Shown: in pieces, positions 26,660 through 64,000 of the stretch | Position numbering within the stretch: position 1 is the first letter of the stretch | Layout: each line of letters opens with the position of its first letter | Source: a virus | IMG/VR virus record: IMGVR_UViG_3300032288_004815 | Span: 1 to 64,000 of that record | Length of the DNA: 64,000 nt | Strand: one strand, 5' to 3' | Program-made: the position numbers and the translations under genes | Notes under the pieces: generated by a model | Told to the model about the DNA's origin: nothing | Seen by the model: the letters and a program-made list of their open reading frames with translations, nothing else | Databases searched by the model: none

Positions 26660-27554
26660 GCCCAAAACAGTTGATGAATATGTGTTCACTGATCAATCAG
26701 TAAAGGAACAAGTACAGGGCTGGATCGAAGAAGGCGCTTGTCCGCATCTACTGTTACATGGACCTGCGGGTACAGGTAAAACTACATTGGCCAAGGTGTT
26801 AGTAAATCAACTTGGTATAGACAACTTTGACTTTTTACAAGTAAACGCTAGTCGAGACAACGGTGTAGACTTTCTTAAAACTAAAATTGAAGGATTTGTC
26901 AGTACTTTGCCATTTGGACATCTTAAAATAGTGCTACTGGACGAAGCAGATTACTTGAGTCCAAACGCACAAGGCCTGCTGCGTGGACTCATGGAAACTT
27001 ATCAAGCACAGGCTAGATTTATTTTAACTTGTAACTTAGTACACAAAATCATTACTCCTATCAAAAGCCGTTGTGTAGATTTACAAATTAATAAAACTGA
27101 TCCAACAGAGTTCACTGCTCGCGTAGCAACTGTGTTAATGACTGAAAATATAGAGTTTGACTTAGACACACTAGACAGCTATGTCAAAGCCACTTACCCA
27201 GATCTTCGTAATTGTTTAAAACTAGTACAGCAAAACAGCAATACTGGCAAACTGATCAGTCCCCGAGAAGAACAGAACAGTACTGCAGATTACAGATTGA
27301 CCATGGTAGACTTGTTCAAACAACGCCGAATCCGCGAAGCAAGAAAACTATTGTGCGAACAGGCCAGGCCTGAAGAAATGGAAGAAATTTTTCGGTGGAT
27401 GTATGATAATCTAGATTTATGGTCCGCTACTGAAGAAGGCCGAGATGAAGCTATTATGATTATTCGTAAAGGCATTGTATGGCATAGTCAATGTGCGGAT
27501 CCAGAAATTAATTTAAGTGCGACTATTACTGAACTGGCGGGAATTCGATCTTGA
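26631..27554 (+). CDS. Clamp loader large subunit (T4 gp44-like AAA+ ATPase)
   Basis: 307 residues, near T4 gp44 (319). Walker A GPAGTGKT (residues 44-51), Walker B LLDEADYLS, sensor 1 FILTCN and the SRC arginine-finger motif are in place (PIKSRCVDL). It uses ATP to open the sliding clamp and load it on primer-template DNA. The partner small subunit (gp62) and clamp (gp45) are not in this window. Starts within the endonuclease gene; its stop overlaps the next TTG start. Confidence 0.93.
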   Translation: MRELWTELYRPKTVDEYVFTDQSVKEQVQGWIEEGACPHLLLHGPAGTGKTTLAKVLVNQLGIDNFDFLQVNASRDNGVDFLKTKIEGFVSTLPFGHLKIVLLDEADYLSPNAQGLLRGLMETYQAQARFILTCNLVHKIITPIKSRCVDLQINKTDPTEFTARVATVLMTENIEFDLDTLDSYVKATYPDLRNCLKLVQQNSNTGKLISPREEQNSTADYRLTMVDLFKQRRIREARKLLCEQARPEEMEEIFRWMYDNLDLWSATEEGRDEAIMIIRKGIVWHSQCADPEINLSATITELAGIRS

Positions 27555-28633
27555 ATTCAAGATTAAAATTTGGTGATACTTTTTGTGTTTTGCCTTGGAT
27601 CGAGCAGCATATTGATATTAAAGGCCAAAAAAGATTTTGTTGTCACTCTAACCAAACTTTAGATTCTGAAGAAACAGCTAATAATTTGCGGCATCAAATT
27701 TGGCAAGGTATTAAAATACCAGATTGTAGCTATTGCTATAGTTTAGAATTAAAAAAAGTTATAAGTCCGCGACAAAAAGAAAGTGCAAGATGGCTGCAAG
27801 ATAAAGATATAAAATTACATTTTGAAGCATCGCAGTGCCCCGAGCCAAAAGTAAAATTTTACGATTTAAGATTCGACAATAAATGTAATTTAGCTTGTAT
27901 TTCTTGCAATGCAGACGATAGTAGTTTTTGGGCTAAAGAACTTACAATACCTATAGTAAATAAAGTCAGAAAAATTGATTTTAATTTAGAAGGTATTAAA
28001 AAAATCTATTTTGCAGGTGGCGAGCCGTTAATAATAAAAAAATACATAGATATATTAGAAACTATTGCAAAAGATTACCCAGAAATTGAAGTAGTAATAA
28101 ACACAAATTTAAGTAGTTTATCTGACAGGTTTTTAAATGCTATTAGTCAAATTGATAATATTTCATTTATGGTGTCAATTGATGCATATAAAAAAGTAAA
28201 TGAATATCATAGATATCCAATTTCATGGGATAAATTTTACAATAATTTAAACTTATTGTTAACAAAAGATGCCGTTATACATTTTAATACTGTAGTAGAC
28301 GCAGTGTCCGTTTTTGGACTAGCAGATTTAAAAAAATTGCAGGATATTCCTATAACTTGGAATCTAACAGTGTTACAAAAACCAAATTGGTTAGTGCTTA
28401 AAAATATTCCAGAAAATTATAAATCTTTGGCGTTAGATGCAGTGCAAAAATTTTCAACTGATAATAAATTTTATTCAAATAGTTTAGATTTTAAATCTAA
28501 AATAAATCAAATTCAAAAAGAAATAAAAGAAATAGGCGATAAAAAACTTTTCATTGATAAAATCACAGAATTGGATATGAGACGAAATATCAATCACAGT
28601 GATTACTTGGGATTTGATTTCAATCAAAAATAA
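27551..28633 (+). CDS. Radical SAM protein, twitch-type
   Basis: 360 residues from TTG 27551. FCVLPWIEQHIDIKGQKRFC and CSYCYSLE form an N-terminal Cys region. NKCNLACISC is the CxxxCxxC cluster motif, followed by YFAGGEPL (GGEP, SAM binding). A similar order is found in the protein at 57277. The family makes 5'-deoxyadenosyl radicals; targets of phage members are not known. Lys/Asn-rich, more AT-rich than its neighbours, hinting at separate origin. Confidence 0.82.
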   Translation: MNSRLKFGDTFCVLPWIEQHIDIKGQKRFCCHSNQTLDSEETANNLRHQIWQGIKIPDCSYCYSLELKKVISPRQKESARWLQDKDIKLHFEASQCPEPKVKFYDLRFDNKCNLACISCNADDSSFWAKELTIPIVNKVRKIDFNLEGIKKIYFAGGEPLIIKKYIDILETIAKDYPEIEVVINTNLSSLSDRFLNAISQIDNISFMVSIDAYKKVNEYHRYPISWDKFYNNLNLLLTKDAVIHFNTVVDAVSVFGLADLKKLQDIPITWNLTVLQKPNWLVLKNIPENYKSLALDAVQKFSTDNKFYSNSLDFKSKINQIQKEIKEIGDKKLFIDKITELDMRRNINHSDYLGFDFNQK

Positions 28634-33580: not shown

Positions 33581-34540
33581 ATGAAACAATTTTTATCATT
33601 ATTAGCTTTAGTGCCGGCCATGGCTTTGGCTTGGCAACCAACTAAACCTGTTACAGTAATATTTCCCAATGGTCCCGGAGCAGGCAATGAAATATCATTT
33701 CGTATTGTAGCAGAACAAATTGAACGAACTTCGAATGTAAAGTTTGTGTCAGAATATAAACCAGGAGCCGACGGTAATATTGCTGGCAATTATTTTAATT
33801 CGTTACTGCCCGACGGACATACTATCATGGTACCTGCCTGTCAAAGCAATTGGGTAACACCAGATATTTGGTATAGTAAAATGGTCAAATATGATGCACA
33901 AAATTGGGAGCCTGTGGCAAACATTGCAAGAAGTCCACTGGCATTTTGGGCTAATCCTAAAAGTCCAATTAATACTCCTGAAGATTTGGTCAAATTAATT
34001 AACAGTAAATCCAGACCTGTAAACATAGCAATCGGCGGTGGCGGGCATAAACTAGCAGTAGAATATCTGACTACTTATTTGTCAGTTCCAGGTGGTGACC
34101 GTGTAGAAACACCCATGTACAAAGGACCCGCACAAGCACTGTTAGATGTTATGGGAGGTTCTGTAGAATTTGGTGTAACTCCAGTAGCAGTAGGCTACCC
34201 CCATGTTCAAGCAGGAAAACTAAAACTAATTGGTATTGCAGATACTAGAGTTTTACCAGGATTAGAAAAATATCCTTTAATGACTGCTGTTGTGCCCAAT
34301 CTCAGTATACACGGCTGCTGGAACATTGTGCTGCCCCCAGGAACACCCCAAGAAATACAGTCTTGGTACAATAAAAATTTTGTACCTGTAATAAGAAATG
34401 CACAGTCTGCAGAAAAATTTAAAGAAAATATGATGTACATAACTGTCAACGAGCATTCGCCCGAAGGAGTTAGAGCCAGTATGCATAAACTTAGACAACA
34501 ATGGCAACCCATTGCAAAGAAAATTAATCCACAACAATGA
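33581..34540 (+). CDS. TctC/Bug-family periplasmic solute-binding protein
   Basis: 319 residues. Signal peptide MKQFLSLLALVPAMALA, then PTKPVTVIFPNGPGAGNEIS and YKPGADGNIAGNYF, the usual opening of tripartite tricarboxylate transporter receptors. GPAQALLDVMGGSVEFGVTP with QAGKLKLIGIAD continues the fold to the C-terminus. Length equals host Bug proteins. They capture carboxylates and other small molecules and hand them to TctAB. The TctA and TctB genes are absent, so the phage protein would rely on host transporters or act alone. This family is hugely expanded in Burkholderiales. Confidence 0.9.
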   Translation: MKQFLSLLALVPAMALAWQPTKPVTVIFPNGPGAGNEISFRIVAEQIERTSNVKFVSEYKPGADGNIAGNYFNSLLPDGHTIMVPACQSNWVTPDIWYSKMVKYDAQNWEPVANIARSPLAFWANPKSPINTPEDLVKLINSKSRPVNIAIGGGGHKLAVEYLTTYLSVPGGDRVETPMYKGPAQALLDVMGGSVEFGVTPVAVGYPHVQAGKLKLIGIADTRVLPGLEKYPLMTAVVPNLSIHGCWNIVLPPGTPQEIQSWYNKNFVPVIRNAQSAEKFKENMMYITVNEHSPEGVRASMHKLRQQWQPIAKKINPQQ

Positions 34541-49186: not shown

Positions 49187-50077
49187 ATGAAAAGTTCACA
49201 ATTTTTAGGCGAAAATTTTGTTGAAGACGCACATTCAGTTCATCAAGATCACGAAGTACAAATGGCTCGTGAAGAATTATATCACTCAGCAGAATACGCA
49301 TTAAGATTACACAAGTTATTACGCAATGTTGATGAACAACAAGGTTTAGAAGGGTGGGTCAGCAGTAAAATTACATTGGCCAGCGACTATCTGAAAACTG
49401 TGTTGGAATACATGGAATACGAACTAATGACTGCGGCTAATCAGCAAACTATGTTACCTATAGCCGAAAATATGCAGCAAGGTGTGGCGGAAGGCTCCGA
49501 ACAAGATGATCGTTATAAAGGTATAACACCTGGAAATGGCAGGAGTGCCGCAAGAAATGCTCATAGATTAGGAAAAACTTATAATAATCCGCACAACCCT
49601 AAGTACCATAAAGCAGCACATGCGGAATGGGAAAAAGAGTATAACAACGAAATAGCACGCCTAAAGAAGAAAAGTGTGGCGGAAGACATGTCTCGAAGAG
49701 TAGCAATTGGACCCGATGGTCAAGTGACAGGAGGTTATCAACCAAGCACTTCTGGTGAACCTGTAGCAACTCAACCAAAAAGTCCTGAAGAAATTGAATT
49801 TGATAAAAAACAAGCAGACTGGCAAAAGCAAAAACAAGAAAATTTATATCAACAAAAATTAAACAATTACATGCGTGGTGATAATAGAGGCGCAGGCTTT
49901 GGTTTTCAACCGAGACCAGAAGATATAGAAAAAGCCAATGCAGCGAGATCAAAATTAGGGATAAACGAAATGTCTGCTGGCAGTGTTGCAACTGTAGTTA
50001 ATCCAACGCCCAAAAACAAAGCAAAAACAGGCACACTGTTTGGTGGTACTTATAAACAACCTAAGGCTAAAAAGTAA
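49187..50077 (+). CDS. Modular virion-associated protein with VAE cleavage-like sites
   Basis: 296 residues. Residues 1-95 are a helical domain (MAREELYHSAEYALRLHKLL). QGVAEG ends it (Glu102). A basic module with NPHNPKYHKAAHAEWEKEYN then reaches SVAED (Glu166), and a Gln/Lys-rich part follows. The VAE|G or VAE|D pattern is like the [IL]xE sites cut by T4 prohead protease gp21, so this may be a packaged polyprotein. Same motif recurs in the gene at 54461. Function otherwise unknown. Confidence 0.62.
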   Translation: MKSSQFLGENFVEDAHSVHQDHEVQMAREELYHSAEYALRLHKLLRNVDEQQGLEGWVSSKITLASDYLKTVLEYMEYELMTAANQQTMLPIAENMQQGVAEGSEQDDRYKGITPGNGRSAARNAHRLGKTYNNPHNPKYHKAAHAEWEKEYNNEIARLKKKSVAEDMSRRVAIGPDGQVTGGYQPSTSGEPVATQPKSPEEIEFDKKQADWQKQKQENLYQQKLNNYMRGDNRGAGFGFQPRPEDIEKANAARSKLGINEMSAGSVATVVNPTPKNKAKTGTLFGGTYKQPKAKK

Positions 50078-53000
50078 TGCAGGATAAAAATAATCAAGAT
50101 TTTAAAAAAAAATCTTTTAGTGATTATTTTAAAACTTTAGAATCCAGTCACGAGTTTACAAATGAGCAGGCAAGACCGAAGCCCAGCACAGTAGATCAAC
50201 CTAGACCGGGCACTGCACCAACTAGACCTTCACAACCAATACAGGGTCCAAGTCAAGTAAGACCTCCAGGAACAACAGCAGCACCTTCTACGGCTGTAGT
50301 TAGACCTGTACCTACTGCAACCGCACCTGCTCCAGCCGCTGCCCCAGCTGCCGCTGCACCAGCTGGTCAATCTACTAGCACTTTAGGTAGAATTGCTCAG
50401 TCTGTGGCACCTTATGTGGCCAGAGCTGGCGCAGCAATAACCGGTGCATTAACACCAGGTAATGTGGGTCAGCAATACGATTTTCCTCAACAGGGTCCAC
50501 TGCGAGGGTCTGAACTTAATCCGTTAACTAATAAACCGTGGACTAAACAAGAGTTAGACTTATACAAAGCTGATCCCACAAAGTTCCTAAGACCACCTCA
50601 GCAACAACCATCAGCTGATGTCAGAAGACCAGAGCTAGACGATCCATTAAGAAGACAGCCTGCAACTAGACCAGCTGCGCCACAATCTGTGCCTACTTCC
50701 AGTGCAGAAATTAAAGCATTGCAAGATAGATTAAGACAAGCAGGTGCAAATATTAGAACAGATGGAATAATGGGCCCACAAACACGACTGGCCATGCAAC
50801 AGTTTCCGCAAGCTGTTCAACCAGCAGTATCTCAACCTGCTGGATCAGCTACTAGTGCAAGAAGACCAGAACTAGATGATCCATTAAGAAGGCAACCAGT
50901 TAGGCAACCTGTAATTGAGCCAGAACAAAGAGCAGATGTCAGAAGACCAGAACTAGATGATCCATTAAGAAGGCAACCAGTTGCTGTACAAAGTCCAACA
51001 ACCGCAGTTTCTCAAGTAACAGTACCGTCAGACGGTATAGTCCCAACAGGATTACCTATGCCTAGGCCGCCTATAGTGAGACCAGGGCCGTTAACTCCAC
51101 AACCTCCGCCAGGCACACCTGTACCTCCTATTAAGCCTGTCCCTGGCACACCAATACCGCCAAGGCCCGTAGAACAACCAGTACCAGAGCCAAGACCACC
51201 AATAACACCTGTGCCTGGAACACCAATTCCCCCAAGACCGCAACCCGCTCCAGCACCCGCTCCAGCACCAGGTCCTGCACCAGCACCAAGGCCACCAATT
51301 CCTTTACCTGAGCCGGTTACACCTCCAGGACCTCCTACTAGGCCGCAACCAGCGCCGGCTCCTGCTCCAGCACCAAGACCAGAACCAGTAAAACCAACAG
51401 AACCGGTGCCAGCGGCGCCCAGTCCACCATCTGAGTCACCGCCACAAGCTCCTCCTGTGGCGCCACCTAGACCTCTTAGAGTTCCAACAGAAAGACCTGC
51501 AGAACAACCTGCTCCAGCACCTGCTCCGGCTCCAGCACCTGCAGGACCTAAACCACAACCTATGCCAACAGGAGAAACGCCTGCACCTGCTGCTCCTCCT
51601 GTGCCCCCTGCTCCACCAGCTCCACCACTTCCCCCTGAGCCAGGTCCTGTCCCTCCTATTAAGCCTGTACCTCCACCAGAACCAGGCCCGCCTCCTGCCA
51701 CACAACAACCGCCAGCATCTGCGCCCCCAGTTAGACCAGTGCCTGTACCTGTTACACCCGGTGAACCTGAACAGCGCAGAAATTTAGATTTTTGGCGCTG
51801 GGGCGGGCAAAAATCAGGGCCTCCAGGTGCTTATAGGTCTGACAAAGAAATGGGCTATAGAGAAAGTTTTGAACACATGACCGACATGCAGAAAAGCATT
51901 TACATAGTTGAATCTATGTCAAAAGCTGAACAAAAATCAACAGGACCAAAGTTTCCAGGTTATTGGAAAGGCACAGATCCTGCCAGTATGAGTCGCAATA
52001 GAATGGTGGGCGGCAGCGAACAACAGCAAGAAAATATACTCAGTGATTTAGAAAGCACAATGAAAAAAACTAGGACACTGAAACAGTTAAAAGAAAAATG
52101 GCAAAAATTTAAAGAAGGCGATGTAATTTCCTTTCCAAGTAGCTCCTCCAATGATCCCAAATTTAAAAATTTAAGTATAGTTCCCACTGAGCCTGCAACT
52201 GCCGGCACTACATCACCACCGTTGGCAGAACCATCAGGTGTTCAATCAGCAACTGGCAAACCCACAACAAGTTCTACAACTGGCCAATCGACTGTAAAAC
52301 CAGAGATGTCTGTGGGAGATCGATATAGACAAAATTTAGGAGCTGTGCCTAATACACAATCAAGTGCTGCTCAATCAAGTGCTGTTCAAACTACAGGGAA
52401 ACCTAGTAATGTTGTTGAATTACCTAAAAGCACAGTATCTACTTCTACCACAACAGGAGCGGCGCCTGCTCAATCCAGTAATGTTGTGCAGATGCCTAGA
52501 TCAGCCCCGGCTGCTGCCGGCTCTTCAATTTTAAAAGGTATTGGGCAAACTGCATCAAAAGTTCTCGGGCCATTGGGAGTAGTGGGATTGGCAACAAACG
52601 CAGCGGCCGTGGCAGATTATGTGCAAAGTCCTGAAGTAGATTTAGGCCGCAGACTAGCTTCTGGTGAAGGATCGGCAGCAGAAAAACACGCTGCCTGGCT
52701 TCAAAAAAGTACAAACATAAGTCAGTACACCCCAACAGCACAGGAAGCTGCAAATTTACTGGCCAGCGGTGATAAAAGAACCATTGATATCTTTGGTGGA
52801 CAAGATAAATTAAAGCAACTGGCGGGCACAACAAAAGCTGCTGAACCCAGTGCTGGTAGTGTAGATAAGATTGTACAAAAAGCCGTTGATGTTGTAAATC
52901 CAAAACAATATCAATACAATCAATTGACTCCAGCGCAACTTGAATACATAAAAAAACGATATGCTGAAGCAGGACAAGGCGCAGGTAGTGATGCACAAAG

Positions 53001-54456
53001 AGTAATTTCAAATGCATTAGACTTTAATAACTTACCAGCAAATAACAGAGAAGCAATTTTTAAATCTTTAGAAGATCCTCGCATTAAACAAGAAATTCAA
53101 CAGTTAGAAAAATCAATGCCACAAAGACCTGGAAGCATAACTAGCACGCAGCCAGGAGCTAAACCATATGGCAACACTGTATTGGATGTAACAGATTCCA
53201 ATTCTGTGGCTGAATACAATAGAATAATTGGTGGTAGGGAGGGAGGAGCAAAAGGATATGATGCTGCATTTATAGCTCCAGGTTATAAAACTCCTGAACA
53301 ATGGTCTAAACAAACATTGGGAGTAGCAAAGAAATTATCTGACATGACATTAGATGAAGTTTTGCGATATCAAAAATTCAGAGGACCTCAGGACAATGCA
53401 GCTGGCAAATATGGTATGGTGCAAAGCACAGTGTTTGGAGAACTTAGAAACGGCAAATTTACCGGTTTAATAAATGATTTGGGAATAACTCCAGAAAATC
53501 TAAAAAGTCAAAAGTTTAGTTCTGATTTTCAAGAACGCCTCCAAGCTGCATTATTCCAAAGACAACAGGCTTCACTTCGACAAAATGGATTAGAATTAAC
53601 TCCTGCAAACCTATATGGATCACATAGTATAGGTGCTGGAGGTCATGCTCAGGTAATGCAAGCAGCAAAAACACAACCCAATACACCAGTAGTTGAAATA
53701 TTAGCTAATAATGCAGCAACAGCTAGAAATTTACAACCAGGATCTCGAGCATACAATGAATTTGTTAAGAAGCACAGCGAGTTTCTAACTAAAAGAAATC
53801 CACACCTACTTACTCCAGCAGGACAGTGGTATAATAGAATGGTGCAGATAGTTGATAATAAAACTGCGGTAAGGGAAACAAGAATGACAAACAAAAAAGA
53901 TGTGGCTGACAGATATAGTTTTGATGAGTTTGACGATTTAGTAAGAAGATTAGGTCAACGGGCTAAAGAACAAGAACGCCGATATGGTCCGGTGGATATC
54001 AAACAATTAGCACAAAGACTGCGCGACATTGCCGACAAGGATGACAAGCCTATCAAAGAACAAGACCCGGCAACTGATCCCACTCGTCAGTCAACTTCAC
54101 CAACTTTACAGGCTACTAGTGCCAACCAACAGGACACTAATCCAAATCAACAGATCACAAGCCAGACTGGCACTAGTCAAGAGCGTAAAGAAAAACAAGC
54201 ACAAGCACAAGACACTGCCACTGCTAAAACCATGGCCAGTAGTTTGACCACAGTTGTTCCTCCTGGAACTAACACAAACGCATTGGCGCAGGCCATAGTA
54301 AATACAAATGACGGTAGACCTTTAAGTGCCGACCAACAAAAAGCTATCAGTGTATTACAACCATTGGTTTTAAAAGCAGCAGAAACTCCAACAACTGCTA
54401 GCGCATTAGGTAGTGCTTTGCAAAAAGCTGGTATGTTAAGTAAACAAGGAAAATAA
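50077..54456 (+). CDS. Giant Pro-rich virion protein with peptidoglycan-binding and lysozyme-like domains
   Basis: 1459 residues. Order: short polar start, Pro/Ala-rich stretch (30-120), first PELDDPLRRQP repeat, PG-binding_1-like domain (about 207-245, IRTDGIMGPQTRLAMQQF), two more repeats, and very Pro-rich segment (about 328-565). Low-complexity Ser/Thr/Gln regions follow, then a globular end (about 1045-1260) with GGREGGAKGYDAAF (Glu1055) and AAGKYGMVQSTVFGEL, like a goose-type or soluble lytic transglycosylase. A charged tail closes it. It looks like a virion-associated wall-degrading or ejection protein. The 3' third is repeated in mirror image from 63211. Confidence 0.68.
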   Translation: MQDKNNQDFKKKSFSDYFKTLESSHEFTNEQARPKPSTVDQPRPGTAPTRPSQPIQGPSQVRPPGTTAAPSTAVVRPVPTATAPAPAAAPAAAAPAGQSTSTLGRIAQSVAPYVARAGAAITGALTPGNVGQQYDFPQQGPLRGSELNPLTNKPWTKQELDLYKADPTKFLRPPQQQPSADVRRPELDDPLRRQPATRPAAPQSVPTSSAEIKALQDRLRQAGANIRTDGIMGPQTRLAMQQFPQAVQPAVSQPAGSATSARRPELDDPLRRQPVRQPVIEPEQRADVRRPELDDPLRRQPVAVQSPTTAVSQVTVPSDGIVPTGLPMPRPPIVRPGPLTPQPPPGTPVPPIKPVPGTPIPPRPVEQPVPEPRPPITPVPGTPIPPRPQPAPAPAPAPGPAPAPRPPIPLPEPVTPPGPPTRPQPAPAPAPAPRPEPVKPTEPVPAAPSPPSESPPQAPPVAPPRPLRVPTERPAEQPAPAPAPAPAPAGPKPQPMPTGETPAPAAPPVPPAPPAPPLPPEPGPVPPIKPVPPPEPGPPPATQQPPASAPPVRPVPVPVTPGEPEQRRNLDFWRWGGQKSGPPGAYRSDKEMGYRESFEHMTDMQKSIYIVESMSKAEQKSTGPKFPGYWKGTDPASMSRNRMVGGSEQQQENILSDLESTMKKTRTLKQLKEKWQKFKEGDVISFPSSSSNDPKFKNLSIVPTEPATAGTTSPPLAEPSGVQSATGKPTTSSTTGQSTVKPEMSVGDRYRQNLGAVPNTQSSAAQSSAVQTTGKPSNVVELPKSTVSTSTTTGAAPAQSSNVVQMPRSAPAAAGSSILKGIGQTASKVLGPLGVVGLATNAAAVADYVQSPEVDLGRRLASGEGSAAEKHAAWLQKSTNISQYTPTAQEAANLLASGDKRTIDIFGGQDKLKQLAGTTKAAEPSAGSVDKIVQKAVDVVNPKQYQYNQLTPAQLEYIKKRYAEAGQGAGSDAQRVISNALDFNNLPANNREAIFKSLEDPRIKQEIQQLEKSMPQRPGSITSTQPGAKPYGNTVLDVTDSNSVAEYNRIIGGREGGAKGYDAAFIAPGYKTPEQWSKQTLGVAKKLSDMTLDEVLRYQKFRGPQDNAAGKYGMVQSTVFGELRNGKFTGLINDLGITPENLKSQKFSSDFQERLQAALFQRQQASLRQNGLELTPANLYGSHSIGAGGHAQVMQAAKTQPNTPVVEILANNAATARNLQPGSRAYNEFVKKHSEFLTKRNPHLLTPAGQWYNRMVQIVDNKTAVRETRMTNKKDVADRYSFDEFDDLVRRLGQRAKEQERRYGPVDIKQLAQRLRDIADKDDKPIKEQDPATDPTRQSTSPTLQATSANQQDTNPNQQITSQTGTSQERKEKQAQAQDTATAKTMASSLTTVVPPGTNTNALAQAIVNTNDGRPLSADQQKAISVLQPLVLKAAETPTTASALGSALQKAGMLSKQGK
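50613..50985 (+). repeat. Three copies of RRPELDDPLRRQP coding repeat
   Basis: Near-identical units at 50613-50660, 50857-50901 and 50932-50985. The second and third are nearly identical in DNA over about 40 bases, pointing to recent duplication. They flank the peptidoglycan-binding-like domain. Confidence 0.85.
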
Positions 54457-54460
54457 AATT

Positions 54461-56416
54461 ATGTTTCTCTCGGATTTATACAATAAAAGAAATGTAAATG
54501 AAAACATAAGTCCCATTGATTTGGCAGAACTGTTGTTTAATGCAGTGCTGAAAAACTTTCCTGAAGCAATCACTCGCTATGGTCACGAAGTAGTAGGTGA
54601 TGCTGTGTTAGATTATGCCGAAGAAGCCACAGATTTGCGTAGCATGAGTGACATTGATATTGCTGCACAAGAAATATTAGACGACTTAGCAAACTATCAA
54701 GGAGATCGTACTAACGAACTAGAACCTGAAAAAAATAATGCTATTTCTGAAAATCTACGCAAATGGTTCAAAGAAAAATGGGTTCGTTTTGGTCCTGATG
54801 GTAAGATACGGGGAGCTTGTGCAAGGGGCGACGACAGCGAAGGCAAACCAAAGTGTTTACCACAAAGTAAAGCCCATGCATTAGGTAAAGCAGGTCGTGC
54901 CAGTGCAGCGGCAAGAAAACGCAGACAAGATCCAAATCCTGAACGCAGTGGTGCAGCTATCAATGTTGCCACTAAAAAGAAATCAAACGAAGGTGTGGCG
55001 GAGGGCTTCAGTGTAGTAAAAAGTGACTATGACTTAGATCAGATGGTGCTGACTTTTGACATTGAAGGTCCGCGTAAAGGCAAACCTTTACAGTTCACCT
55101 ACTGGGACTATGACGAAGATTTCGCCAACGCTGAACGCCGAGATGTGTTCGATCAACTGCAACAACAATCCTGGTATGCGGGTCTGGATCATCCTACCAA
55201 GATGGAAATACTTGATGCATCATACAAGGCTATCAGAGGTGAAGAACCCAGCGAATACAAACCTACAGTAGATGATGAACCTTTGGACGAACAAGGTGTG
55301 TCGGAAGGCTCTCTAGATGAACTACATGCTGACATGTCAAATGTATATAATAAACTTGCTCCCGGAATTGAAAAATACAAAGATAAATCTGGTGCCGATA
55401 AATTATATCAATCATTATTTTCAGTGGCACAACAACACGGTGCTAGCGCCATATTTGAATTCAAAAGAATGTTAAATAACGCCAGAAATAGTGCTCATAT
55501 GGACTATGATACTAATCCCGGTGGGTTCGAAAATTGGTTCTGGTATTTGCCATTCGCAGATGACGAGCAAGGTGTAGCAGAAGGCTTACAGCAGACTTTA
55601 CGCAAGATTGTCCCTGGATATGCCAAGCGTGAGATTGATAAAAAGATGGACACTGGAAAGTTTGGTAAGACTGATGCAGATAAAGATGCAAACTTCTATC
55701 GTTATAAAAAGATCCAAGACAAGATCAAAGGGCAAGGTATAGTGGAAGAAAAATGTCCACATTGTGGTGGCCCTTCCTTTAACAATTTAATTTTAGCAGA
55801 AAAACAGGATGCTTGTTATCACAAGGTAAAAAGTAGATACAAAGTATGGCCCAGTGCTTACGCTAGTGGTGCATTGGTTCAGTGTCGCAAAAAAGGTGCA
55901 GCCAATTGGGGCAAAAAGAAAACCAATGAGACTAAACAGCCGAGCTTGGATTCAGACACAGTTAAAAGATTACAAAATTACCTTAATATTAAGTTTGGAG
56001 CAAATTTAGATGTAGATGGCGTATTAGGCAATCTTACAAAAAAATCTATCAAGAAATTTATGAAAAAAACAAAAACTAAACTTGCTCCTGAGCCAGATAG
56101 AACCACCGCAGTACAGGGTAAGACAAAAAAAGTAAATGAAACAAGATTTTATTTTTATCCAAAAGCCACAGATGCCAGCACACTGGTCAACGAGTTTAAG
56201 TTAACCAAAGACAACCAAGGTTGGTACTTAACTGAATCACAAGGACCTGCAGCAGTGCTAGAAGCACAACGAGCATTTGGTATTCCAAAAATCAAAGAAG
56301 TCAAATTAAAAGAATTTAATCTGGCAGCTTTCAGTGGCAGTGCTGCAATTAAAGGCGATGACAATGTACTAAGTCCCATTGGCAGCAAGGCATTGAAAGG
56401 TCGTAAACATGCGTAA
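54461..56416 (+). CDS. Modular virion-associated polyprotein with three V(A/S)E-G sites
   Basis: 651 residues. Module 1 (1-181) ends with a basic segment KWVRFGPDGKIRGACARGDD, PKCLPQSKAHALGKAGRASA and NEGVAEG (Glu181). Module 2 (182-282) ends DEQGVSEG. Module 3 (283-374) ends DEQGVAEG. Module 4 has CPHCGG, then DACYHKVKSRYKVWPSAYAS, a block in many T4-like virion proteins. A PG-binding-like helix set (VKRLQNYLNIKFGANLDVDG) and a beta domain close the chain. Cutting at the sites would give four products. Head-internal role is inferred. Exact second copy in the right arm. Confidence 0.68.
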   Translation: MFLSDLYNKRNVNENISPIDLAELLFNAVLKNFPEAITRYGHEVVGDAVLDYAEEATDLRSMSDIDIAAQEILDDLANYQGDRTNELEPEKNNAISENLRKWFKEKWVRFGPDGKIRGACARGDDSEGKPKCLPQSKAHALGKAGRASAAARKRRQDPNPERSGAAINVATKKKSNEGVAEGFSVVKSDYDLDQMVLTFDIEGPRKGKPLQFTYWDYDEDFANAERRDVFDQLQQQSWYAGLDHPTKMEILDASYKAIRGEEPSEYKPTVDDEPLDEQGVSEGSLDELHADMSNVYNKLAPGIEKYKDKSGADKLYQSLFSVAQQHGASAIFEFKRMLNNARNSAHMDYDTNPGGFENWFWYLPFADDEQGVAEGLQQTLRKIVPGYAKREIDKKMDTGKFGKTDADKDANFYRYKKIQDKIKGQGIVEEKCPHCGGPSFNNLILAEKQDACYHKVKSRYKVWPSAYASGALVQCRKKGAANWGKKKTNETKQPSLDSDTVKRLQNYLNIKFGANLDVDGVLGNLTKKSIKKFMKKTKTKLAPEPDRTTAVQGKTKKVNETRFYFYPKATDASTLVNEFKLTKDNQGWYLTESQGPAAVLEAQRAFGIPKIKEVKLKEFNLAAFSGSAAIKGDDNVLSPIGSKALKGRKHA

Positions 56417-57273: not shown

Positions 57274-57276
57274 TTG

Positions 57277-58392
57277 ATGAAAGACTATTACTGTAGTGCA
57301 ATAGACACAGGTCTATTTGTGTCTGTCAACGGCGGCGTGGGTCTATGTTGTAGCGGCGACGGTTTTTTTGGTTCTGTAAGACAGCAACCAATACAGGAAA
57401 TTTTTACCGCGAATAAATTTACACAACTACAACAAGACCTGCATACAGGGCAGTCGAATGATTATTGCAAAGGTTGTTATAAAATTGAAAATACTGCTCC
57501 AGGCAGTAGTCAATGGTCTGCATTCAACGACCAATTTCAAAGGCAAACACAAAGACAACTTAAACTTATAGATATTCGCTGGAGCAATGTTTGTAATTTG
57601 ACCTGTAGATACTGTAACACACATGACAGCAGTGAATGGCGAAAAATAAGAAATTTACCCATCGAGTCAGTGAATAGGGATTATACAGAGTCGTTGTTTG
57701 ACTTAGTTGAAGAAAATTTACACAGTATAGAAGTTGTTTATCTATTAGGCGGAGAACCTCTGTTACAAAAACACAATATAAGATTATTAGACATGCTGCC
57801 CAAACATGTTAAGATTGATATATTAACCAACGGCAGTGTTGATTTGATAAACAACAAAGTATATGAAAAACTAACTGAATTTAAAAATACTTATTGGAAT
57901 TTAAGTTTCGATAATGTTGCCGATAGGTTTGAATATGTGCGAGCAGGCAGCAATTGGAATTTGCTGTGCAATAATATCAATATACTCAAACAAGACTTTA
58001 CAGCTAACAATGTAACTTTTCATCCTGTTTACAGTATTTTTAATGCCACAAGACTTAAAGAATTATATGACTTTTCAGACAGGTGCGGCAGTTTAAGAAT
58101 TAATTGGCAACTGGCTTTAGCCACTGTCGATCCTTATAATTTACCCACTGACAGTTTTTTAATTTTTGGACACAATCGTGAAATAATTAATTTGGCCTTG
58201 GAAGAAATTGATCAGTTAGATTTTGATGATTATTTCTTAAGCGGTGTTAAAACCAGTTTACAAGACAACATTACAGATCCCACAAAATCTCAAAAATTTT
58301 TAAATTGGATAGATCAAATGGAGCAAACAATTGTTCCAAAATATAGTTTCCAAGCACTGTGGCCTGAATTAAATACATTATTGAACAAATAA
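57277..58392 (+). CDS. Radical SAM protein, twitch-type
   Basis: 371 residues. GGVGLCCSGDGFFGS and DYCKGCYKIE form the N-terminal Cys region, NVCNLTCRYC the CxxxCxxC cluster site, and YLLGGEPLL the SAM-binding GGEP. Same plan as the protein at 27551, so paralogues. Target unknown. ATG 57277 is used rather than TTG 57274. Mirror copy at 59275-60390. Confidence 0.83.
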   Translation: MKDYYCSAIDTGLFVSVNGGVGLCCSGDGFFGSVRQQPIQEIFTANKFTQLQQDLHTGQSNDYCKGCYKIENTAPGSSQWSAFNDQFQRQTQRQLKLIDIRWSNVCNLTCRYCNTHDSSEWRKIRNLPIESVNRDYTESLFDLVEENLHSIEVVYLLGGEPLLQKHNIRLLDMLPKHVKIDILTNGSVDLINNKVYEKLTEFKNTYWNLSFDNVADRFEYVRAGSNWNLLCNNINILKQDFTANNVTFHPVYSIFNATRLKELYDFSDRCGSLRINWQLALATVDPYNLPTDSFLIFGHNREIINLALEEIDQLDFDDYFLSGVKTSLQDNITDPTKSQKFLNWIDQMEQTIVPKYSFQALWPELNTLLNK

Positions 58393-58833: not shown

Positions 58834-58914
58834 ATTAAATAATAACAAGCTACATAAATTTGCTATAAAATGCCCGCTTGCTCCGCCCGGAAAACACACA
58901 ACAATGTTTGTCAC
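58834..58914 (-). pseudogene. Mirror copy of the cut sulfotransferase-like gene
   Basis: Same 27 codons as 58753-58833, on the other strand. Confidence 0.65.
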
Positions 58915-59177
58915 AAAGTTTTTCCTACAGTTTCTAAAATAGTATTCAGCTCATCGTGATCGCGATTAGTCTCGCCTAATTTGGCTTTGTGTGCAATTTT
59001 AATTGCTTTTTTAAGAGTTGCAGGTTTTATTTCTAGTTCTTCGGCAATGGCTTTGATGGTGTCATTGAGTCCTGCGTTTAAATCGTCGACTTCGGCCATT
59101 ACTTGCATGCCTTCGTTAATAAGTTGGGTAAGTTTAATTTTAGCTTCACCGTTGAAGCTGCGATTGTAGTCTGTCAT
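58911..59177 (-). CDS. dsbA: DsbA-like protein, mirror copy
   Basis: Identical to 58490-58756, with its promoter mirrored at 59211-59239. Not independent evidence of a second gene. Confidence 0.75.
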   Translation of the reverse strand: MTDYNRSFNGEAKIKLTQLINEGMQVMAEVDDLNAGLNDTIKAIAEELEIKPATLKKAIKIAHKAKLGETNRDHDELNTILETVGKTL

Positions 59178-59210
59178 GGAATCTCCTAATTGAAATGTGC
59201 TACACTCTAG

Positions 59211-59239
59211 ATTATACGGTAGCGAATCGCATAAGTCAA
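59211..59239 (-). promoter_or_regulatory. Sigma70-type promoter, mirror copy
   Basis: Reverse complement of 58428-58456. Confidence 0.7.
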
Positions 59240-59274
59240 GGCAGTAGCCGCCCACCCGGTCCTAAGGCCAAGGT

Positions 59275-60390
59275 TTATTTGTTCAATAATGTATTTAATT
59301 CAGGCCACAGTGCTTGGAAACTATATTTTGGAACAATTGTTTGCTCCATTTGATCTATCCAATTTAAAAATTTTTGAGATTTTGTGGGATCTGTAATGTT
59401 GTCTTGTAAACTGGTTTTAACACCGCTTAAGAAATAATCATCAAAATCTAACTGATCAATTTCTTCCAAGGCCAAATTAATTATTTCACGATTGTGTCCA
59501 AAAATTAAAAAACTGTCAGTGGGTAAATTATAAGGATCGACAGTGGCTAAAGCCAGTTGCCAATTAATTCTTAAACTGCCGCACCTGTCTGAAAAGTCAT
59601 ATAATTCTTTAAGTCTTGTGGCATTAAAAATACTGTAAACAGGATGAAAAGTTACATTGTTAGCTGTAAAGTCTTGTTTGAGTATATTGATATTATTGCA
59701 CAGCAAATTCCAATTGCTGCCTGCTCGCACATATTCAAACCTATCGGCAACATTATCGAAACTTAAATTCCAATAAGTATTTTTAAATTCAGTTAGTTTT
59801 TCATATACTTTGTTGTTTATCAAATCAACACTGCCGTTGGTTAATATATCAATCTTAACATGTTTGGGCAGCATGTCTAATAATCTTATATTGTGTTTTT
59901 GTAACAGAGGTTCTCCGCCTAATAGATAAACAACTTCTATACTGTGTAAATTTTCTTCAACTAAGTCAAACAACGACTCTGTATAATCCCTATTCACTGA
60001 CTCGATGGGTAAATTTCTTATTTTTCGCCATTCACTGCTGTCATGTGTGTTACAGTATCTACAGGTCAAATTACAAACATTGCTCCAGCGAATATCTATA
60101 AGTTTAAGTTGTCTTTGTGTTTGCCTTTGAAATTGGTCGTTGAATGCAGACCATTGACTACTGCCTGGAGCAGTATTTTCAATTTTATAACAACCTTTGC
60201 AATAATCATTCGACTGCCCTGTATGCAGGTCTTGTTGTAGTTGTGTAAATTTATTCGCGGTAAAAATTTCCTGTATTGGTTGCTGTCTTACAGAACCAAA
60301 AAAACCGTCGCCGCTACAACATAGACCCACGCCGCCGTTGACAGACACAAATAGACCTGTGTCTATTGCACTACAGTAATAGTCTTTCAT
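59275..60390 (-). CDS. Radical SAM protein, mirror copy
   Basis: Identical to 57277-58392. Confidence 0.75.
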   Translation of the reverse strand: MKDYYCSAIDTGLFVSVNGGVGLCCSGDGFFGSVRQQPIQEIFTANKFTQLQQDLHTGQSNDYCKGCYKIENTAPGSSQWSAFNDQFQRQTQRQLKLIDIRWSNVCNLTCRYCNTHDSSEWRKIRNLPIESVNRDYTESLFDLVEENLHSIEVVYLLGGEPLLQKHNIRLLDMLPKHVKIDILTNGSVDLINNKVYEKLTEFKNTYWNLSFDNVADRFEYVRAGSNWNLLCNNINILKQDFTANNVTFHPVYSIFNATRLKELYDFSDRCGSLRINWQLALATVDPYNLPTDSFLIFGHNREIINLALEEIDQLDFDDYFLSGVKTSLQDNITDPTKSQKFLNWIDQMEQTIVPKYSFQALWPELNTLLNK

Positions 60391-60393
60391 CAA

Positions 60394-60828
60394 TTATTTA
60401 AGACTGGCTCTTAGCATCCAACCATGCTTTTGATGTGCATCTAGCCTCTCGGCTAAAAAGTTGCTGAGCCCGTGTTGTCCTTCGCGTTCGGCTAAATCAT
60501 AGACAAGTTTAATGATTTTAAGAATTTTATCATTGTCTGCCAATAATTCAGTTACCATGGCATCTTTGGGCAGCACTGCTGTTTCATCTTCAATTTGACT
60601 AAGCATACTGAGTCTTGTGTAACTGCCAGGAGTATAGCTGCCTAGTTTACGAATATTTTCGGCAAAATCATCGATGCTGCCATATACTTCTTCGTAGATT
60701 TTACCAAACAACTCATGATATTCTAAAAAGTCAGATCCTTCAACATTCCAGTGAAAGTAGTGTGCTTTTAAATAAAAACTAAAAGTACTGCTGAATCCTA
60801 TTTTCGTAGCTTTAATTAATTCTTCCAT
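60394..60828 (-). CDS. Dps-like protein, mirror copy
   Basis: Identical to 56839-57273. Confidence 0.76.
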   Translation of the reverse strand: MEELIKATKIGFSSTFSFYLKAHYFHWNVEGSDFLEYHELFGKIYEEVYGSIDDFAENIRKLGSYTPGSYTRLSMLSQIEDETAVLPKDAMVTELLADNDKILKIIKLVYDLAEREGQHGLSNFLAERLDAHQKHGWMLRASLK

Positions 60829-60829
60829 T

Positions 60830-61258
60830 TTATGCTGCCTTTTTATTTTTGTCTTTTTCTGTAATTGGTCCGCCGGTGATCCATGCAGCACAACTTCTTG
60901 CTCCTGCACATTTGAAATGCAGGAAATTACAATAGCCTATGTCTGCAATATTTATACTAGCATTAGCATCAATGTTTGTTTCGCTGCCACGAATACCGCT
61001 GGCAATGCATTCACGCATACTGTCACTGACATCAAAAGCTGCACAGTTAGCGCACTGCATGGTCTTGGCCACTGCTTCAGAAACTTTGAATCTTTTAGCT
61101 GCTTGCCGCCAGTAGTTGTCGGGTTTGTCGGGATTAGCTGGACCATAATGATAAGAATCTATAGCTTTTTGCCTATTTTTAAGATTAACATCAATGTTGT
61201 GTGTGGCCACAGGACAGTTTTTTGCTGCTGCCTCCATGATATTAATAAAGTTACGCAT
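60830..61258 (-). CDS. Cysteine-rich phage protein, mirror copy
   Basis: Identical to 56409-56837. Confidence 0.62.
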   Translation of the reverse strand: MRNFINIMEAAAKNCPVATHNIDVNLKNRQKAIDSYHYGPANPDKPDNYWRQAAKRFKVSEAVAKTMQCANCAAFDVSDSMRECIASGIRGSETNIDANASINIADIGYCNFLHFKCAGARSCAAWITGGPITEKDKNKKAA

Positions 61259-63206
61259 GTTTACGACCTTTCAATGCCTTGCTGCCAATGGGACTTAGTA
61301 CATTGTCATCGCCTTTAATTGCAGCACTGCCACTGAAAGCTGCCAGATTAAATTCTTTTAATTTGACTTCTTTGATTTTTGGAATACCAAATGCTCGTTG
61401 TGCTTCTAGCACTGCTGCAGGTCCTTGTGATTCAGTTAAGTACCAACCTTGGTTGTCTTTGGTTAACTTAAACTCGTTGACCAGTGTGCTGGCATCTGTG
61501 GCTTTTGGATAAAAATAAAATCTTGTTTCATTTACTTTTTTTGTCTTACCCTGTACTGCGGTGGTTCTATCTGGCTCAGGAGCAAGTTTAGTTTTTGTTT
61601 TTTTCATAAATTTCTTGATAGATTTTTTTGTAAGATTGCCTAATACGCCATCTACATCTAAATTTGCTCCAAACTTAATATTAAGGTAATTTTGTAATCT
61701 TTTAACTGTGTCTGAATCCAAGCTCGGCTGTTTAGTCTCATTGGTTTTCTTTTTGCCCCAATTGGCTGCACCTTTTTTGCGACACTGAACCAATGCACCA
61801 CTAGCGTAAGCACTGGGCCATACTTTGTATCTACTTTTTACCTTGTGATAACAAGCATCCTGTTTTTCTGCTAAAATTAAATTGTTAAAGGAAGGGCCAC
61901 CACAATGTGGACATTTTTCTTCCACTATACCTTGCCCTTTGATCTTGTCTTGGATCTTTTTATAACGATAGAAGTTTGCATCTTTATCTGCATCAGTCTT
62001 ACCAAACTTTCCAGTGTCCATCTTTTTATCAATCTCACGCTTGGCATATCCAGGGACAATCTTGCGTAAAGTCTGCTGTAAGCCTTCTGCTACACCTTGC
62101 TCGTCATCTGCGAATGGCAAATACCAGAACCAATTTTCGAACCCACCGGGATTAGTATCATAGTCCATATGAGCACTATTTCTGGCGTTATTTAACATTC
62201 TTTTGAATTCAAATATGGCGCTAGCACCGTGTTGTTGTGCCACTGAAAATAATGATTGATATAATTTATCGGCACCAGATTTATCTTTGTATTTTTCAAT
62301 TCCGGGAGCAAGTTTATTATATACATTTGACATGTCAGCATGTAGTTCATCTAGAGAGCCTTCCGACACACCTTGTTCGTCCAAAGGTTCATCATCTACT
62401 GTAGGTTTGTATTCGCTGGGTTCTTCACCTCTGATAGCCTTGTATGATGCATCAAGTATTTCCATCTTGGTAGGATGATCCAGACCCGCATACCAGGATT
62501 GTTGTTGCAGTTGATCGAACACATCTCGGCGTTCAGCGTTGGCGAAATCTTCGTCATAGTCCCAGTAGGTGAACTGTAAAGGTTTGCCTTTACGCGGACC
62601 TTCAATGTCAAAAGTCAGCACCATCTGATCTAAGTCATAGTCACTTTTTACTACACTGAAGCCCTCCGCCACACCTTCGTTTGATTTCTTTTTAGTGGCA
62701 ACATTGATAGCTGCACCACTGCGTTCAGGATTTGGATCTTGTCTGCGTTTTCTTGCCGCTGCACTGGCACGACCTGCTTTACCTAATGCATGGGCTTTAC
62801 TTTGTGGTAAACACTTTGGTTTGCCTTCGCTGTCGTCGCCCCTTGCACAAGCTCCCCGTATCTTACCATCAGGACCAAAACGAACCCATTTTTCTTTGAA
62901 CCATTTGCGTAGATTTTCAGAAATAGCATTATTTTTTTCAGGTTCTAGTTCGTTAGTACGATCTCCTTGATAGTTTGCTAAGTCGTCTAATATTTCTTGT
63001 GCAGCAATATCAATGTCACTCATGCTACGCAAATCTGTGGCTTCTTCGGCATAATCTAACACAGCATCACCTACTACTTCGTGACCATAGCGAGTGATTG
63101 CTTCAGGAAAGTTTTTCAGCACTGCATTAAACAACAGTTCTGCCAAATCAATGGGACTTATGTTTTCATTTACATTTCTTTTATTGTATAAATCCGAGAG
63201 AAACAT
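61251..63206 (-). CDS. Modular virion polyprotein, mirror copy
   Basis: Identical to 54461-56416, with the same three V(A/S)E-G sites. Confidence 0.62.
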   Translation of the reverse strand: MFLSDLYNKRNVNENISPIDLAELLFNAVLKNFPEAITRYGHEVVGDAVLDYAEEATDLRSMSDIDIAAQEILDDLANYQGDRTNELEPEKNNAISENLRKWFKEKWVRFGPDGKIRGACARGDDSEGKPKCLPQSKAHALGKAGRASAAARKRRQDPNPERSGAAINVATKKKSNEGVAEGFSVVKSDYDLDQMVLTFDIEGPRKGKPLQFTYWDYDEDFANAERRDVFDQLQQQSWYAGLDHPTKMEILDASYKAIRGEEPSEYKPTVDDEPLDEQGVSEGSLDELHADMSNVYNKLAPGIEKYKDKSGADKLYQSLFSVAQQHGASAIFEFKRMLNNARNSAHMDYDTNPGGFENWFWYLPFADDEQGVAEGLQQTLRKIVPGYAKREIDKKMDTGKFGKTDADKDANFYRYKKIQDKIKGQGIVEEKCPHCGGPSFNNLILAEKQDACYHKVKSRYKVWPSAYASGALVQCRKKGAANWGKKKTNETKQPSLDSDTVKRLQNYLNIKFGANLDVDGVLGNLTKKSIKKFMKKTKTKLAPEPDRTTAVQGKTKKVNETRFYFYPKATDASTLVNEFKLTKDNQGWYLTESQGPAAVLEAQRAFGIPKIKEVKLKEFNLAAFSGSAAIKGDDNVLSPIGSKALKGRKHA

Positions 63207-63210
63207 AATT

Positions 63211-64000
63211 TTATTTTCCTTGTTTACTTAACATACCAGCTTTTTGCAAAGCACTACCTAATGCGCTAGCAGTTGTTGGAGTTTCTGCTGCTTTTAAAAC
63301 CAATGGTTGTAATACACTGATAGCTTTTTGTTGGTCGGCACTTAAAGGTCTACCGTCATTTGTATTTACTATGGCCTGCGCCAATGCGTTTGTGTTAGTT
63401 CCAGGAGGAACAACTGTGGTCAAACTACTGGCCATGGTTTTAGCAGTGGCAGTGTCTTGTGCTTGTGCTTGTTTTTCTTTACGCTCTTGACTAGTGCCAG
63501 TCTGGCTTGTGATCTGTTGATTTGGATTAGTGTCCTGTTGGTTGGCACTAGTAGCCTGTAAAGTTGGTGAAGTTGACTGACGAGTGGGATCAGTTGCCGG
63601 GTCTTGTTCTTTGATAGGCTTGTCATCCTTGTCGGCAATGTCGCGCAGTCTTTGTGCTAATTGTTTGATATCCACCGGACCATATCGGCGTTCTTGTTCT
63701 TTAGCCCGTTGACCTAATCTTCTTACTAAATCGTCAAACTCATCAAAACTATATCTGTCAGCCACATCTTTTTTGTTTGTCATTCTTGTTTCCCTTACCG
63801 CAGTTTTATTATCAACTATCTGCACCATTCTATTATACCACTGTCCTGCTGGAGTAAGTAGGTGTGGATTTCTTTTAGTTAGAAACTCGCTGTGCTTCTT
63901 AACAAATTCATTGTATGCTCGAGATCCTGGTTGTAAATTTCTAGCTGTTGCTGCATTATTAGCTAATATTTCAACTACTGGTGTATTGGGTTGTGTTTTT
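63211..64000 (-). CDS. Giant Pro-rich virion protein, C-terminal part, mirror copy
   Basis: Mirror of 53667-54456. The gene runs out of the window at its 5' side, so only the last 262 residues are seen. An internal ATG at 63828 is not a start. Confidence 0.62.
   Translation of the reverse strand, partial: KTQPNTPVVEILANNAATARNLQPGSRAYNEFVKKHSEFLTKRNPHLLTPAGQWYNRMVQIVDNKTAVRETRMTNKKDVADRYSFDEFDDLVRRLGQRAKEQERRYGPVDIKQLAQRLRDIADKDDKPIKEQDPATDPTRQSTSPTLQATSANQQDTNPNQQITSQTGTSQERKEKQAQAQDTATAKTMASSLTTVVPPGTNTNALAQAIVNTNDGRPLSADQQKAISVLQPLVLKAAETPTTASALGSALQKAGMLSKQGK

What the first reader, a model, noticed from the sequence alone, without database searches (positions are those of the whole stretch)
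49484..55585. Repeated GVAEG peptide and DNA motif joins virion modules
GGTGTGGCGGAAGGC or close forms occur at 49481, 49673, 54992, 55295 and 55571. The coded V(A/S)E followed by G or D resembles prohead protease sites. The codons GCG and TCG are rare in this AT-rich genome yet kept, which suggests spread or selection at DNA level. The proteins may be polyproteins made of exchangeable head-internal modules joined by a cuttable linker.
Basis: partly seen in the sequence, partly recalled or inferred. Interest (0 to 1): 0.7.

Follow-up and report, generated by a model that had tools for sequence, protein, structure and literature searches.

The report
Shuffled phage polyproteins with cuttable linkers
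Uncultivated T4-like giant phages appear to build long proteins from interchangeable small modules joined by one 18-letter DNA sequence, which seems to serve both as the joint where modules are swapped and as the site where the phage's own head protease cuts them apart before they are injected into the host.

Summary
GGTGTGGCGGAAGGC (really NAAGGTGTGGCGGAAGGY, coding (Q/K/E)-GVAE|G) recurs in frame in over 100 uncultivated phage contigs, up to 8 near-copies per protein, and is absent as a repeat from 257 Gb of bacterial and archaeal genomes. Three signals agree. (1) DNA: synonymous positions are frozen (Ala GCG 88% versus 6.7% background; Val GTG 91% versus 20%) within about 18 nt. (2) Recombination: homology between proteins starts and stops at the motif (181 of 1165 ends versus 7 in a control); module families have many different neighbours; near-identical genes differ by one module with the motif at its junction. 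(3) Protein: changes keep Glu at P1 and an aliphatic residue at P3 and little else, the rule of T4 prohead protease gp21. Ten motif-bearing contigs encode gp21; all 81 capsid proteins examined have L-x-E at the propeptide border. Polyprotein N-termini resemble T4 capsid-targeting sequences, and Tat/Sec signal peptides follow predicted cuts. Best reading: head-targeted, gp21-cut polyproteins of injected proteins whose modules shuffle at the linker. Cutting, packaging and the DNA-level mechanism are inferred. No earlier description was found.

The parts
49187..50077 (+). Polyprotein gene A, 296 aa, two linker copies
   Evidence: no Pfam or PHROG match
49187..49216 (+). Capsid-targeting-like N-terminus MKSSQFLGEN with a LxE site (LGE|N)
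   Evidence: pattern in 20 of 115 polyprotein starts versus 5 of 1687 internal Met
49478..49495 (+). Linker copy 1, CAAGGTGTGGCGGAAGGC (exact), QGVAE|G, predicted cut after 49492
49493..49684 (+). Module between linkers 1 and 2 (64 aa)
   Evidence: boundaries from the linker
49670..49687 (+). Linker copy 2, AAAAGTGTGGCGGAAGAC, KSVAE|D
50077..54456 (+). Neighbouring 1459-aa proline-rich protein with PG_binding-like stretch; no linker copy; possibly another virion protein
54461..56416 (+). Polyprotein gene C, 651 aa, three linkers and one decayed linker
54461..55003 (+). N-terminal module(s) including basic phrog_23735-like stretch
54989..55006 (+). Linker copy 3, GAAGGTGTGGCGGAGGGC, EGVAE|G
55004..55306 (+). 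Module GFSVVKSDYDLDQ..; same kind of module found next to other neighbours in L067 and L042
55292..55309 (+). Linker copy 4, CAAGGTGTGTCGGAAGGC, QGVSE|G
55307..55582 (+). Module GSLDELHADMS.. (92 aa)
55568..55585 (+). Linker copy 5, CAAGGTGTAGCAGAAGGC, QGVAE|G
55583..55747 (+). Module GLQQTLRKIVPGYAKREIDKK..YKKIQDKIKGQGIVE; homologues follow the linker in L007 and precede a different module in L065
55733..55750 (+). Decayed linker, CAAGGTATAGTGGAAGAA, GIVE|E (5 mismatches; keeps aliphatic-x-Glu)
   Evidence: the same EKCPHC module follows an intact GVAE in L112 and L248
55748..56413 (+). C-terminal basic module(s), phrog_727 / DUF5872-like
62082..62675 (-). Mirror copies of linkers 3 to 5 (inverted duplicate of the contig, not independent)

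Best explanation
Genes A and C encode head-targeted polyproteins: strings of small, mostly independent proteins (median internal module 77 aa) carried into the prohead by a capsid-targeting N-terminus, cut after Glu at VAE|G linkers by the phage's T4-type prohead protease gp21, and injected with the DNA. The 18-nt linker DNA is also the joint at which modules are gained, lost, duplicated and exchanged between co-infecting phages, most likely by the phage's homologous or annealing recombination. Copies that stay identical to the pool recombine more often, which keeps the synonymous positions fixed. Shown here: DNA-level conservation, module exchange at the motif, protein-level constraint on P1 and P3, co-occurrence with gp21, CTS-like N-termini. 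Inferred: cutting, packaging, injection, and the recombination mechanism behind the codon conservation.
For: Codons: GCG 114/129 and GTG 117/129 after dropping one exact copy per ORF; in contigs chosen by capsid gene instead, 5/8 GCG and 8/8 GTG. The preceding codon is CAA, AAA or GAA, with CAG in only 4 of 393. Logo sharply bounded. Homology ends at the motif 181/1165 versus 7 in control. One module family has 11 copies with 9 right-hand neighbours. Presence/absence pairs L092/L254, L068/L024, L011/L002. Substitutions: P1 Glu 23 synonymous, 4 not; P3 Val to Met/Leu/Ile 31, to Ala 1; P4, P2 and P1' lax. gp21 (PF03420) in 10 motif contigs. L-x-E in 81/81 capsid proteins. CTS-like N-termini: odds ratio about 70 over internal Met. 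Eight signal-peptide-like segments lie 4-13 aa after a linker cut, and three more follow LTE|G, VDE|G or INE|D; two are Pfam TAT_signal. Module 0 folds as a small domain with disordered linker ends and resembles a free 60-aa phage protein (TM 0.87). T4 rules from PMC9026906 and PMC5694885.
Against: No virion proteomics exists for these uncultivated phages. The window's own record is a fragment with neither gp21 nor gp23, and several long motif contigs (G007, G008, G009, G036) show no gp21 in the stretch available. The usual P3 residue is Val, whereas T4 sites are L/I-x-E and these phages' capsid sites are L-x-E, so the linker may be a weak site. Cultured relatives tested (PA5oct, Vibrio 2.275.O, Phosso, BF, two cyanophages) lack the motif. 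Only 17-34% of the polyprotein starts match the CTS pattern. The signal-peptide modules belong to only a few families. Most loci were chosen by an exact copy, so identity figures are partly biased; the capsid-selected set is small (8 copies).
Confidence: 0.75

Rival explanations
1. The 18-nt sequence is a target of a dedicated site-specific recombinase, homing endonuclease or similar enzyme, which moves modules as cassettes; cutting of the protein is secondary.
For: Sharp boundaries and frozen third positions of about 18 nt; exact cassette insertion between two copies in L092 versus L254.
Against: No recombinase or endonuclease gene was seen beside the polyprotein genes in the window; this was not checked systematically in the other loci. 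The site is not palindromic, and substitutions at P4, P2 and P1' are tolerated at DNA level while P1 and P3 are kept by amino acid, which a pure DNA target does not predict.
Confidence: 0.12
2. Ordinary protein linker of recently spread modules: identity reflects recent horizontal transfer, with no DNA-level function and no cutting.
For: Modules are clearly mobile between phages; aligned sites are often in related contigs.
Against: At aligned sites with only 20-50% protein identity around them, linker codons are 84% identical against 42% for the same amino acids in the flanks (small sample). Glu and aliphatic constraint and signal peptides placed just after the site are unexplained.
Confidence: 0.08
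3. The linkers are cut, but by a host or other phage protease after injection rather than by gp21 in the prohead.
For: Several motif contigs show no gp21; P3 is Val rather than Leu; some modules carry signal peptides that act only in the host.
Against: CTS-like N-termini ending in hydrophobic-x-Glu, gp21 in ten motif contigs, the same Glu/aliphatic rule as the capsid propeptide.
Confidence: 0.1
4. A mobile mini-element that inserts in frame into existing genes, like the Rickettsia palindromic elements, creating the appearance of linkers.
For: Short dispersed in-frame sequence in many genes.
Against: Aligned homologues almost never have the motif opposite a short gap (2 of 170 with gaps of 4-12); homology stops at the motif instead. 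No palindrome.
Confidence: 0.02

Closest known systems
T4 internal head proteins (IPI-IPIII, Alt) with capsid-targeting sequence and gp21 processing (PMC9026906, PMC5694885, PMC3012670)
   Same: Short N-terminal targeting peptide removed by gp21, cut rule hydrophobic-x-Glu, small diverse injected proteins (mature IPI is 76 aa; modules here have a median of 77 aa), rapid turnover between relatives.
   Different: T4 proteins are separate genes with one or two cuts; here many modules sit in one chain, joined by a repeated linker whose DNA is conserved and at which modules recombine.
Polyvalent proteins of phages and plasmids (Iyer et al. 2017, PMC5512222)
   Same: Long multidomain proteins with disparate domains (ParB-like, acetyltransferase, deaminase, DUF5710 found here) thought to enter the host with the DNA.
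   Different: In the passages read they are not described as joined by one repeated DNA-conserved linker or cut by a prohead protease at each joint; proposed processing is by built-in metallopeptidases.
phiKZ / SPN3US ejection proteins cut by gp175 / gp245
   Same: Giant-phage head proteins cut after Glu at a three-residue motif, often several sites per propeptide.
   Different: Those sites are S/A-x-E or A-x-E; here P3 is V/M/L/I. There the cut parts are mostly discarded propeptides, not a string of domains.
Integron cassettes (from general knowledge)
   Same: Exchangeable units bounded by a conserved short DNA site.
   Different: Integron cassettes are separate genes moved by an integrase at structured attC sites; here units are in-frame parts of one protein and no integrase is known.

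Membership tests
T4-type gp21-processed head-internal proteins | gp21 family S77 prohead protease encoded by the same phage | tested here: met
   PF03420 over cut-off in ten motif-bearing contigs; not in the window's own fragment record
T4-type gp21-processed head-internal proteins | Cut-site rule hydrophobic(L/I)-x-Glu | tested here: met
   Substitution spectrum keeps Glu at P1 and V/M/L/I at P3; commonest residue is Val, a mild departure; capsid site L-x-E in 81/81
T4-type gp21-processed head-internal proteins | N-terminal capsid-targeting sequence | tested here: inconclusive
   Pattern strongly enriched, 20/115 (strict) or 39/115 (loose) starts versus 5/1687 and 15/1687 internal Met, but most starts do not match and targeting itself is untested
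T4-type gp21-processed head-internal proteins | Present and cut in the virion | not testable with these tools
   No virion proteome for these uncultivated phages
Polyvalent proteins | Several domains of disparate activity in one polypeptide | tested here: met
   GNAT plus dCMP deaminase in one protein (L032); GNAT, DUF5710, ParB-like and nucleotidyltransferase-like domains across others
Polyvalent proteins | Delivered into the host with the DNA | not testable with these tools
   Needs infection experiments
phiKZ-type S/A-x-E prohead protease substrates | Ser/Ala at P3 | tested here: not met
   P3 is V, M, L or I with one Ala change
Palindromic mini-elements inserted in ORFs | Insertion into otherwise continuous genes | tested here: not met
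   Only 2 of 170 aligned sites lie opposite a short gap
Rak2/PA5oct-like T4-related jumbo phages (carrier) | gp23 homologue closest to that group | tested here: met
   60-66% identity to PA5oct, Serratia BF, Vibrio 2.275.O capsid proteins, tested on a relative of the window phage only

The most novel reading that the evidence does not exclude
A cassette system inside proteins: one 18-nt sequence selected twice, as a recombination joint at DNA level and as a prohead-protease site at protein level, lets a large group of phages assemble and swap arrays of injected small proteins, including ones fitted with Tat or Sec signals that only work once the linker is cut.
Probability: 0.6. Interest if true: 0.9.

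Novelty: new variant of a known kind. Interest (0 to 1): 0.82.

Why it matters
It would explain how T4-like giant phages diversify the set of proteins they inject, and would turn a mass of hypothetical proteins in environmental phages into a readable catalogue: every stretch between two linkers is a candidate injected protein. It offers a natural in-frame shuffling joint, a delivery system in which many small proteins ride in one chain, and a testable claim that phages send signal-peptide-bearing proteins back out to the host envelope.

Tried and rejected
Insertion of a mobile mini-element: rejected. Chance: rejected. phiKZ-type cut rule: rejected. Looking for the motif in cultured relatives: absent. 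tblastn of two polyproteins against 50,697 phage records: no match. ADP-ribosyltransferase (Alt-like) identity of the YLWHGSRQKIPMLEPRQ module: structure model too poor (pLDDT 42), no PDB or PHROG match, so not claimed. PDB fold search of module 0: nothing significant. Pfam on 18 polyproteins: most modules unmatched. Literature: no paper with GVAEG and phage, or with QGVAEG; no paper found on cut-linker module shuffling; the library lacks most subscription journals and preprints, so earlier description cannot be excluded. One align_proteins call failed on wrong coordinates.

Full report
Observation. Nine matches with up to three mismatches stand against 0.5 expected; three of them are mirror copies because the record (117,666 bp) is an inverted duplicate about 58,833 (5167 of 5167 mirrored bases agree in the window; G000 copies at 49481 and 68172 are symmetric), and one is unrelated. 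The rare-codon remark is right (P about 1e-4). A sixth, decayed linker lies at 55733 (GIVE|E).

Extent. Reading all exact matches, nearly all lie in long open frames as (Q/K/E)GVAEG, often two to six per gene; a minority, mostly GC-rich, are chance. A pattern open at every synonymous position gave 60 matches in 38 contigs and 1 in the reversed control. Of 13 contigs of 50 kb or more chosen only by their capsid gene, five carry it. In 257 Gb of bacterial and archaeal genomes there are 26 single matches of the 18-mer, all in DNA of 53% GC or more without a second copy.

DNA-level conservation. In 172 non-redundant ORFs with 394 sites, after dropping one exact copy per ORF to reduce selection bias, Ala is GCG in 114 of 129 (background 6.7%) and Val is GTG in 117 of 129 (background 19.6%). 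In the capsid-chosen contigs 5 of 8 are GCG and 8 of 8 GTG. The codon before is CAA, AAA or GAA, that is Q, K or E with the last two bases kept, while CAG is almost absent. The logo rises and falls within about 18 nt. Where two proteins align across the site at 20-50% identity, linker codons agree in 84% against 42% in the flanks (9 pairs).

Module exchange. DNA homology between ORFs ends at the linker in both partners for 86 of 563 right ends and 95 of 602 left ends, against 5 and 2 when the ends are shifted. Internal modules have a median of 77 aa. The module GSNDTIYPNAEVI / GHADQQRK.. occurs 11 times in 10 loci with nine different right neighbours, and is tandemly duplicated with its linker in L247. 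L092 and L254 are 91-98% identical on both sides of a 300-nt module that L092 has and L254 lacks, with the linker at the junction; L068/L024 and L011/L002 are similar cases, some with decayed linkers. In the window, the module GLQQTLRKIVPGYAKREIDKK.. has relatives after an exact linker in L007 and before a different module in L065.

Protein-level constraint. Among copies with up to three mismatches, changes at P1 Glu are 23 synonymous and 4 not; Val at P3 changes to Met, Leu or Ile 31 times and to Ala once; P4, P2 and P1' vary freely. This is the rule of T4 gp21, L/I-x-E (PMC9026906), with Val instead of Leu/Ile most often. gp21 (PF03420) is present in ten motif contigs. In 81 of 81 capsid proteins of this group the border of the propeptide reads L-x-E|(S/N/A/T/Q), the L and E invariant and the neighbours variable.

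Head targeting and what is carried. T4 internal proteins are targeted by 10-19 residue N-terminal propeptides that gp21 removes (PMC9026906). Starts here such as MRAHEFIVE, MKSSQFLGE, MKINEIISE match M[RK] followed within a few residues by two hydrophobics, any residue and Glu in 20 of 115 polyproteins (39 with a looser pattern) against 5 (15) of 1687 internal Met. Domains include GNAT, dCMP deaminase, DUF5710, DUF6321, ParB-like and nucleotidyltransferase-like. Eight signal-peptide-like segments begin 4 to 13 residues after a linker cut, and three more of the same kinds follow LTE|G, VDE|G and INE|D; two are matched by Pfam TAT_signal just under its curated cut-off. Other hydrophobic segments in the same scan lie elsewhere and do not look like these two signal types. 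A signal peptide works only at an N-terminus, so this placement argues that the linker is cut. They belong to a few families and are not independent events. A predicted structure of module 0 is a compact beta-beta-beta-beta-alpha domain (pLDDT near 88) with disordered ends that include the linker; its best match among viral models is a free 60-residue phage protein (E 5.5e-4, TM 0.87).

Carrier. The capsid protein of a relative is 60-66% identical to those of PA5oct, Serratia BF and Vibrio 2.275.O jumbo phages. The cultured phages tested do not have the linker. Cyanophages have the same basic modules without this linker.

Mechanism and limits. Shown: DNA-level conservation, exchange at the motif, Glu/aliphatic constraint, co-occurrence with gp21, targeting-like N-termini. 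Inferred: cutting by gp21 in the prohead, packaging, injection, and recombination as the reason for codon conservation. No virion data exist and the window's own record lacks the protease and capsid genes, being a fragment.

Novelty. The parts are known kinds (T4 internal proteins, polyvalent proteins); a repeated in-frame linker conserved as DNA, at which modules recombine, and which reads as a protease site, was not found in the literature held.

Noticed in passing
window 58834-64000; record G000: The 117,666-bp record is an inverted duplicate about 58,833; probably an assembly artefact, or a head-to-head dimer. Counts from it should be halved.
   Followed up: partly
L315:724-3270 (Synechococcus phage ACG-2014f), L316:3476-4954 (S-SSM7): Cyanophage proteins with the same basic modules carry their own repeated stretch (KEHFSNWRDD, KEQFSNWRDN, KEGFSSWRDDL; EELYSDWRGEL in S-SSM7), possibly an analogous linker.
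   Followed up: no
L281, L119, L112, L118, L102, L010 and others: Many ORFs without the linker in the same phages also begin MRAxEF(I/L)xE; this targeting-like start may list further injected proteins.
   Followed up: partly
L244, L066, L143, L271, L112, L279: Tat- and Sec-type signal peptides directly after predicted cuts suggest injected proteins sent to the host envelope.
   Followed up: partly
window 7629-8615 and 33581-34540: Porin-like and TctC-like (tricarboxylate binding) genes of bacterial look in a phage contig, perhaps Burkholderiales-like (from memory, not searched); a possible host hint.
   Followed up: no
window 50077-54456: 1459-aa protein with a long proline-rich stretch, PG-binding-like stretch and a lysozyme-like C-terminal half (by eye), between the two polyprotein genes.
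   Followed up: no
window 57274-58392 and 27551-28633: Two radical-SAM-like genes (by eye).
   Followed up: no
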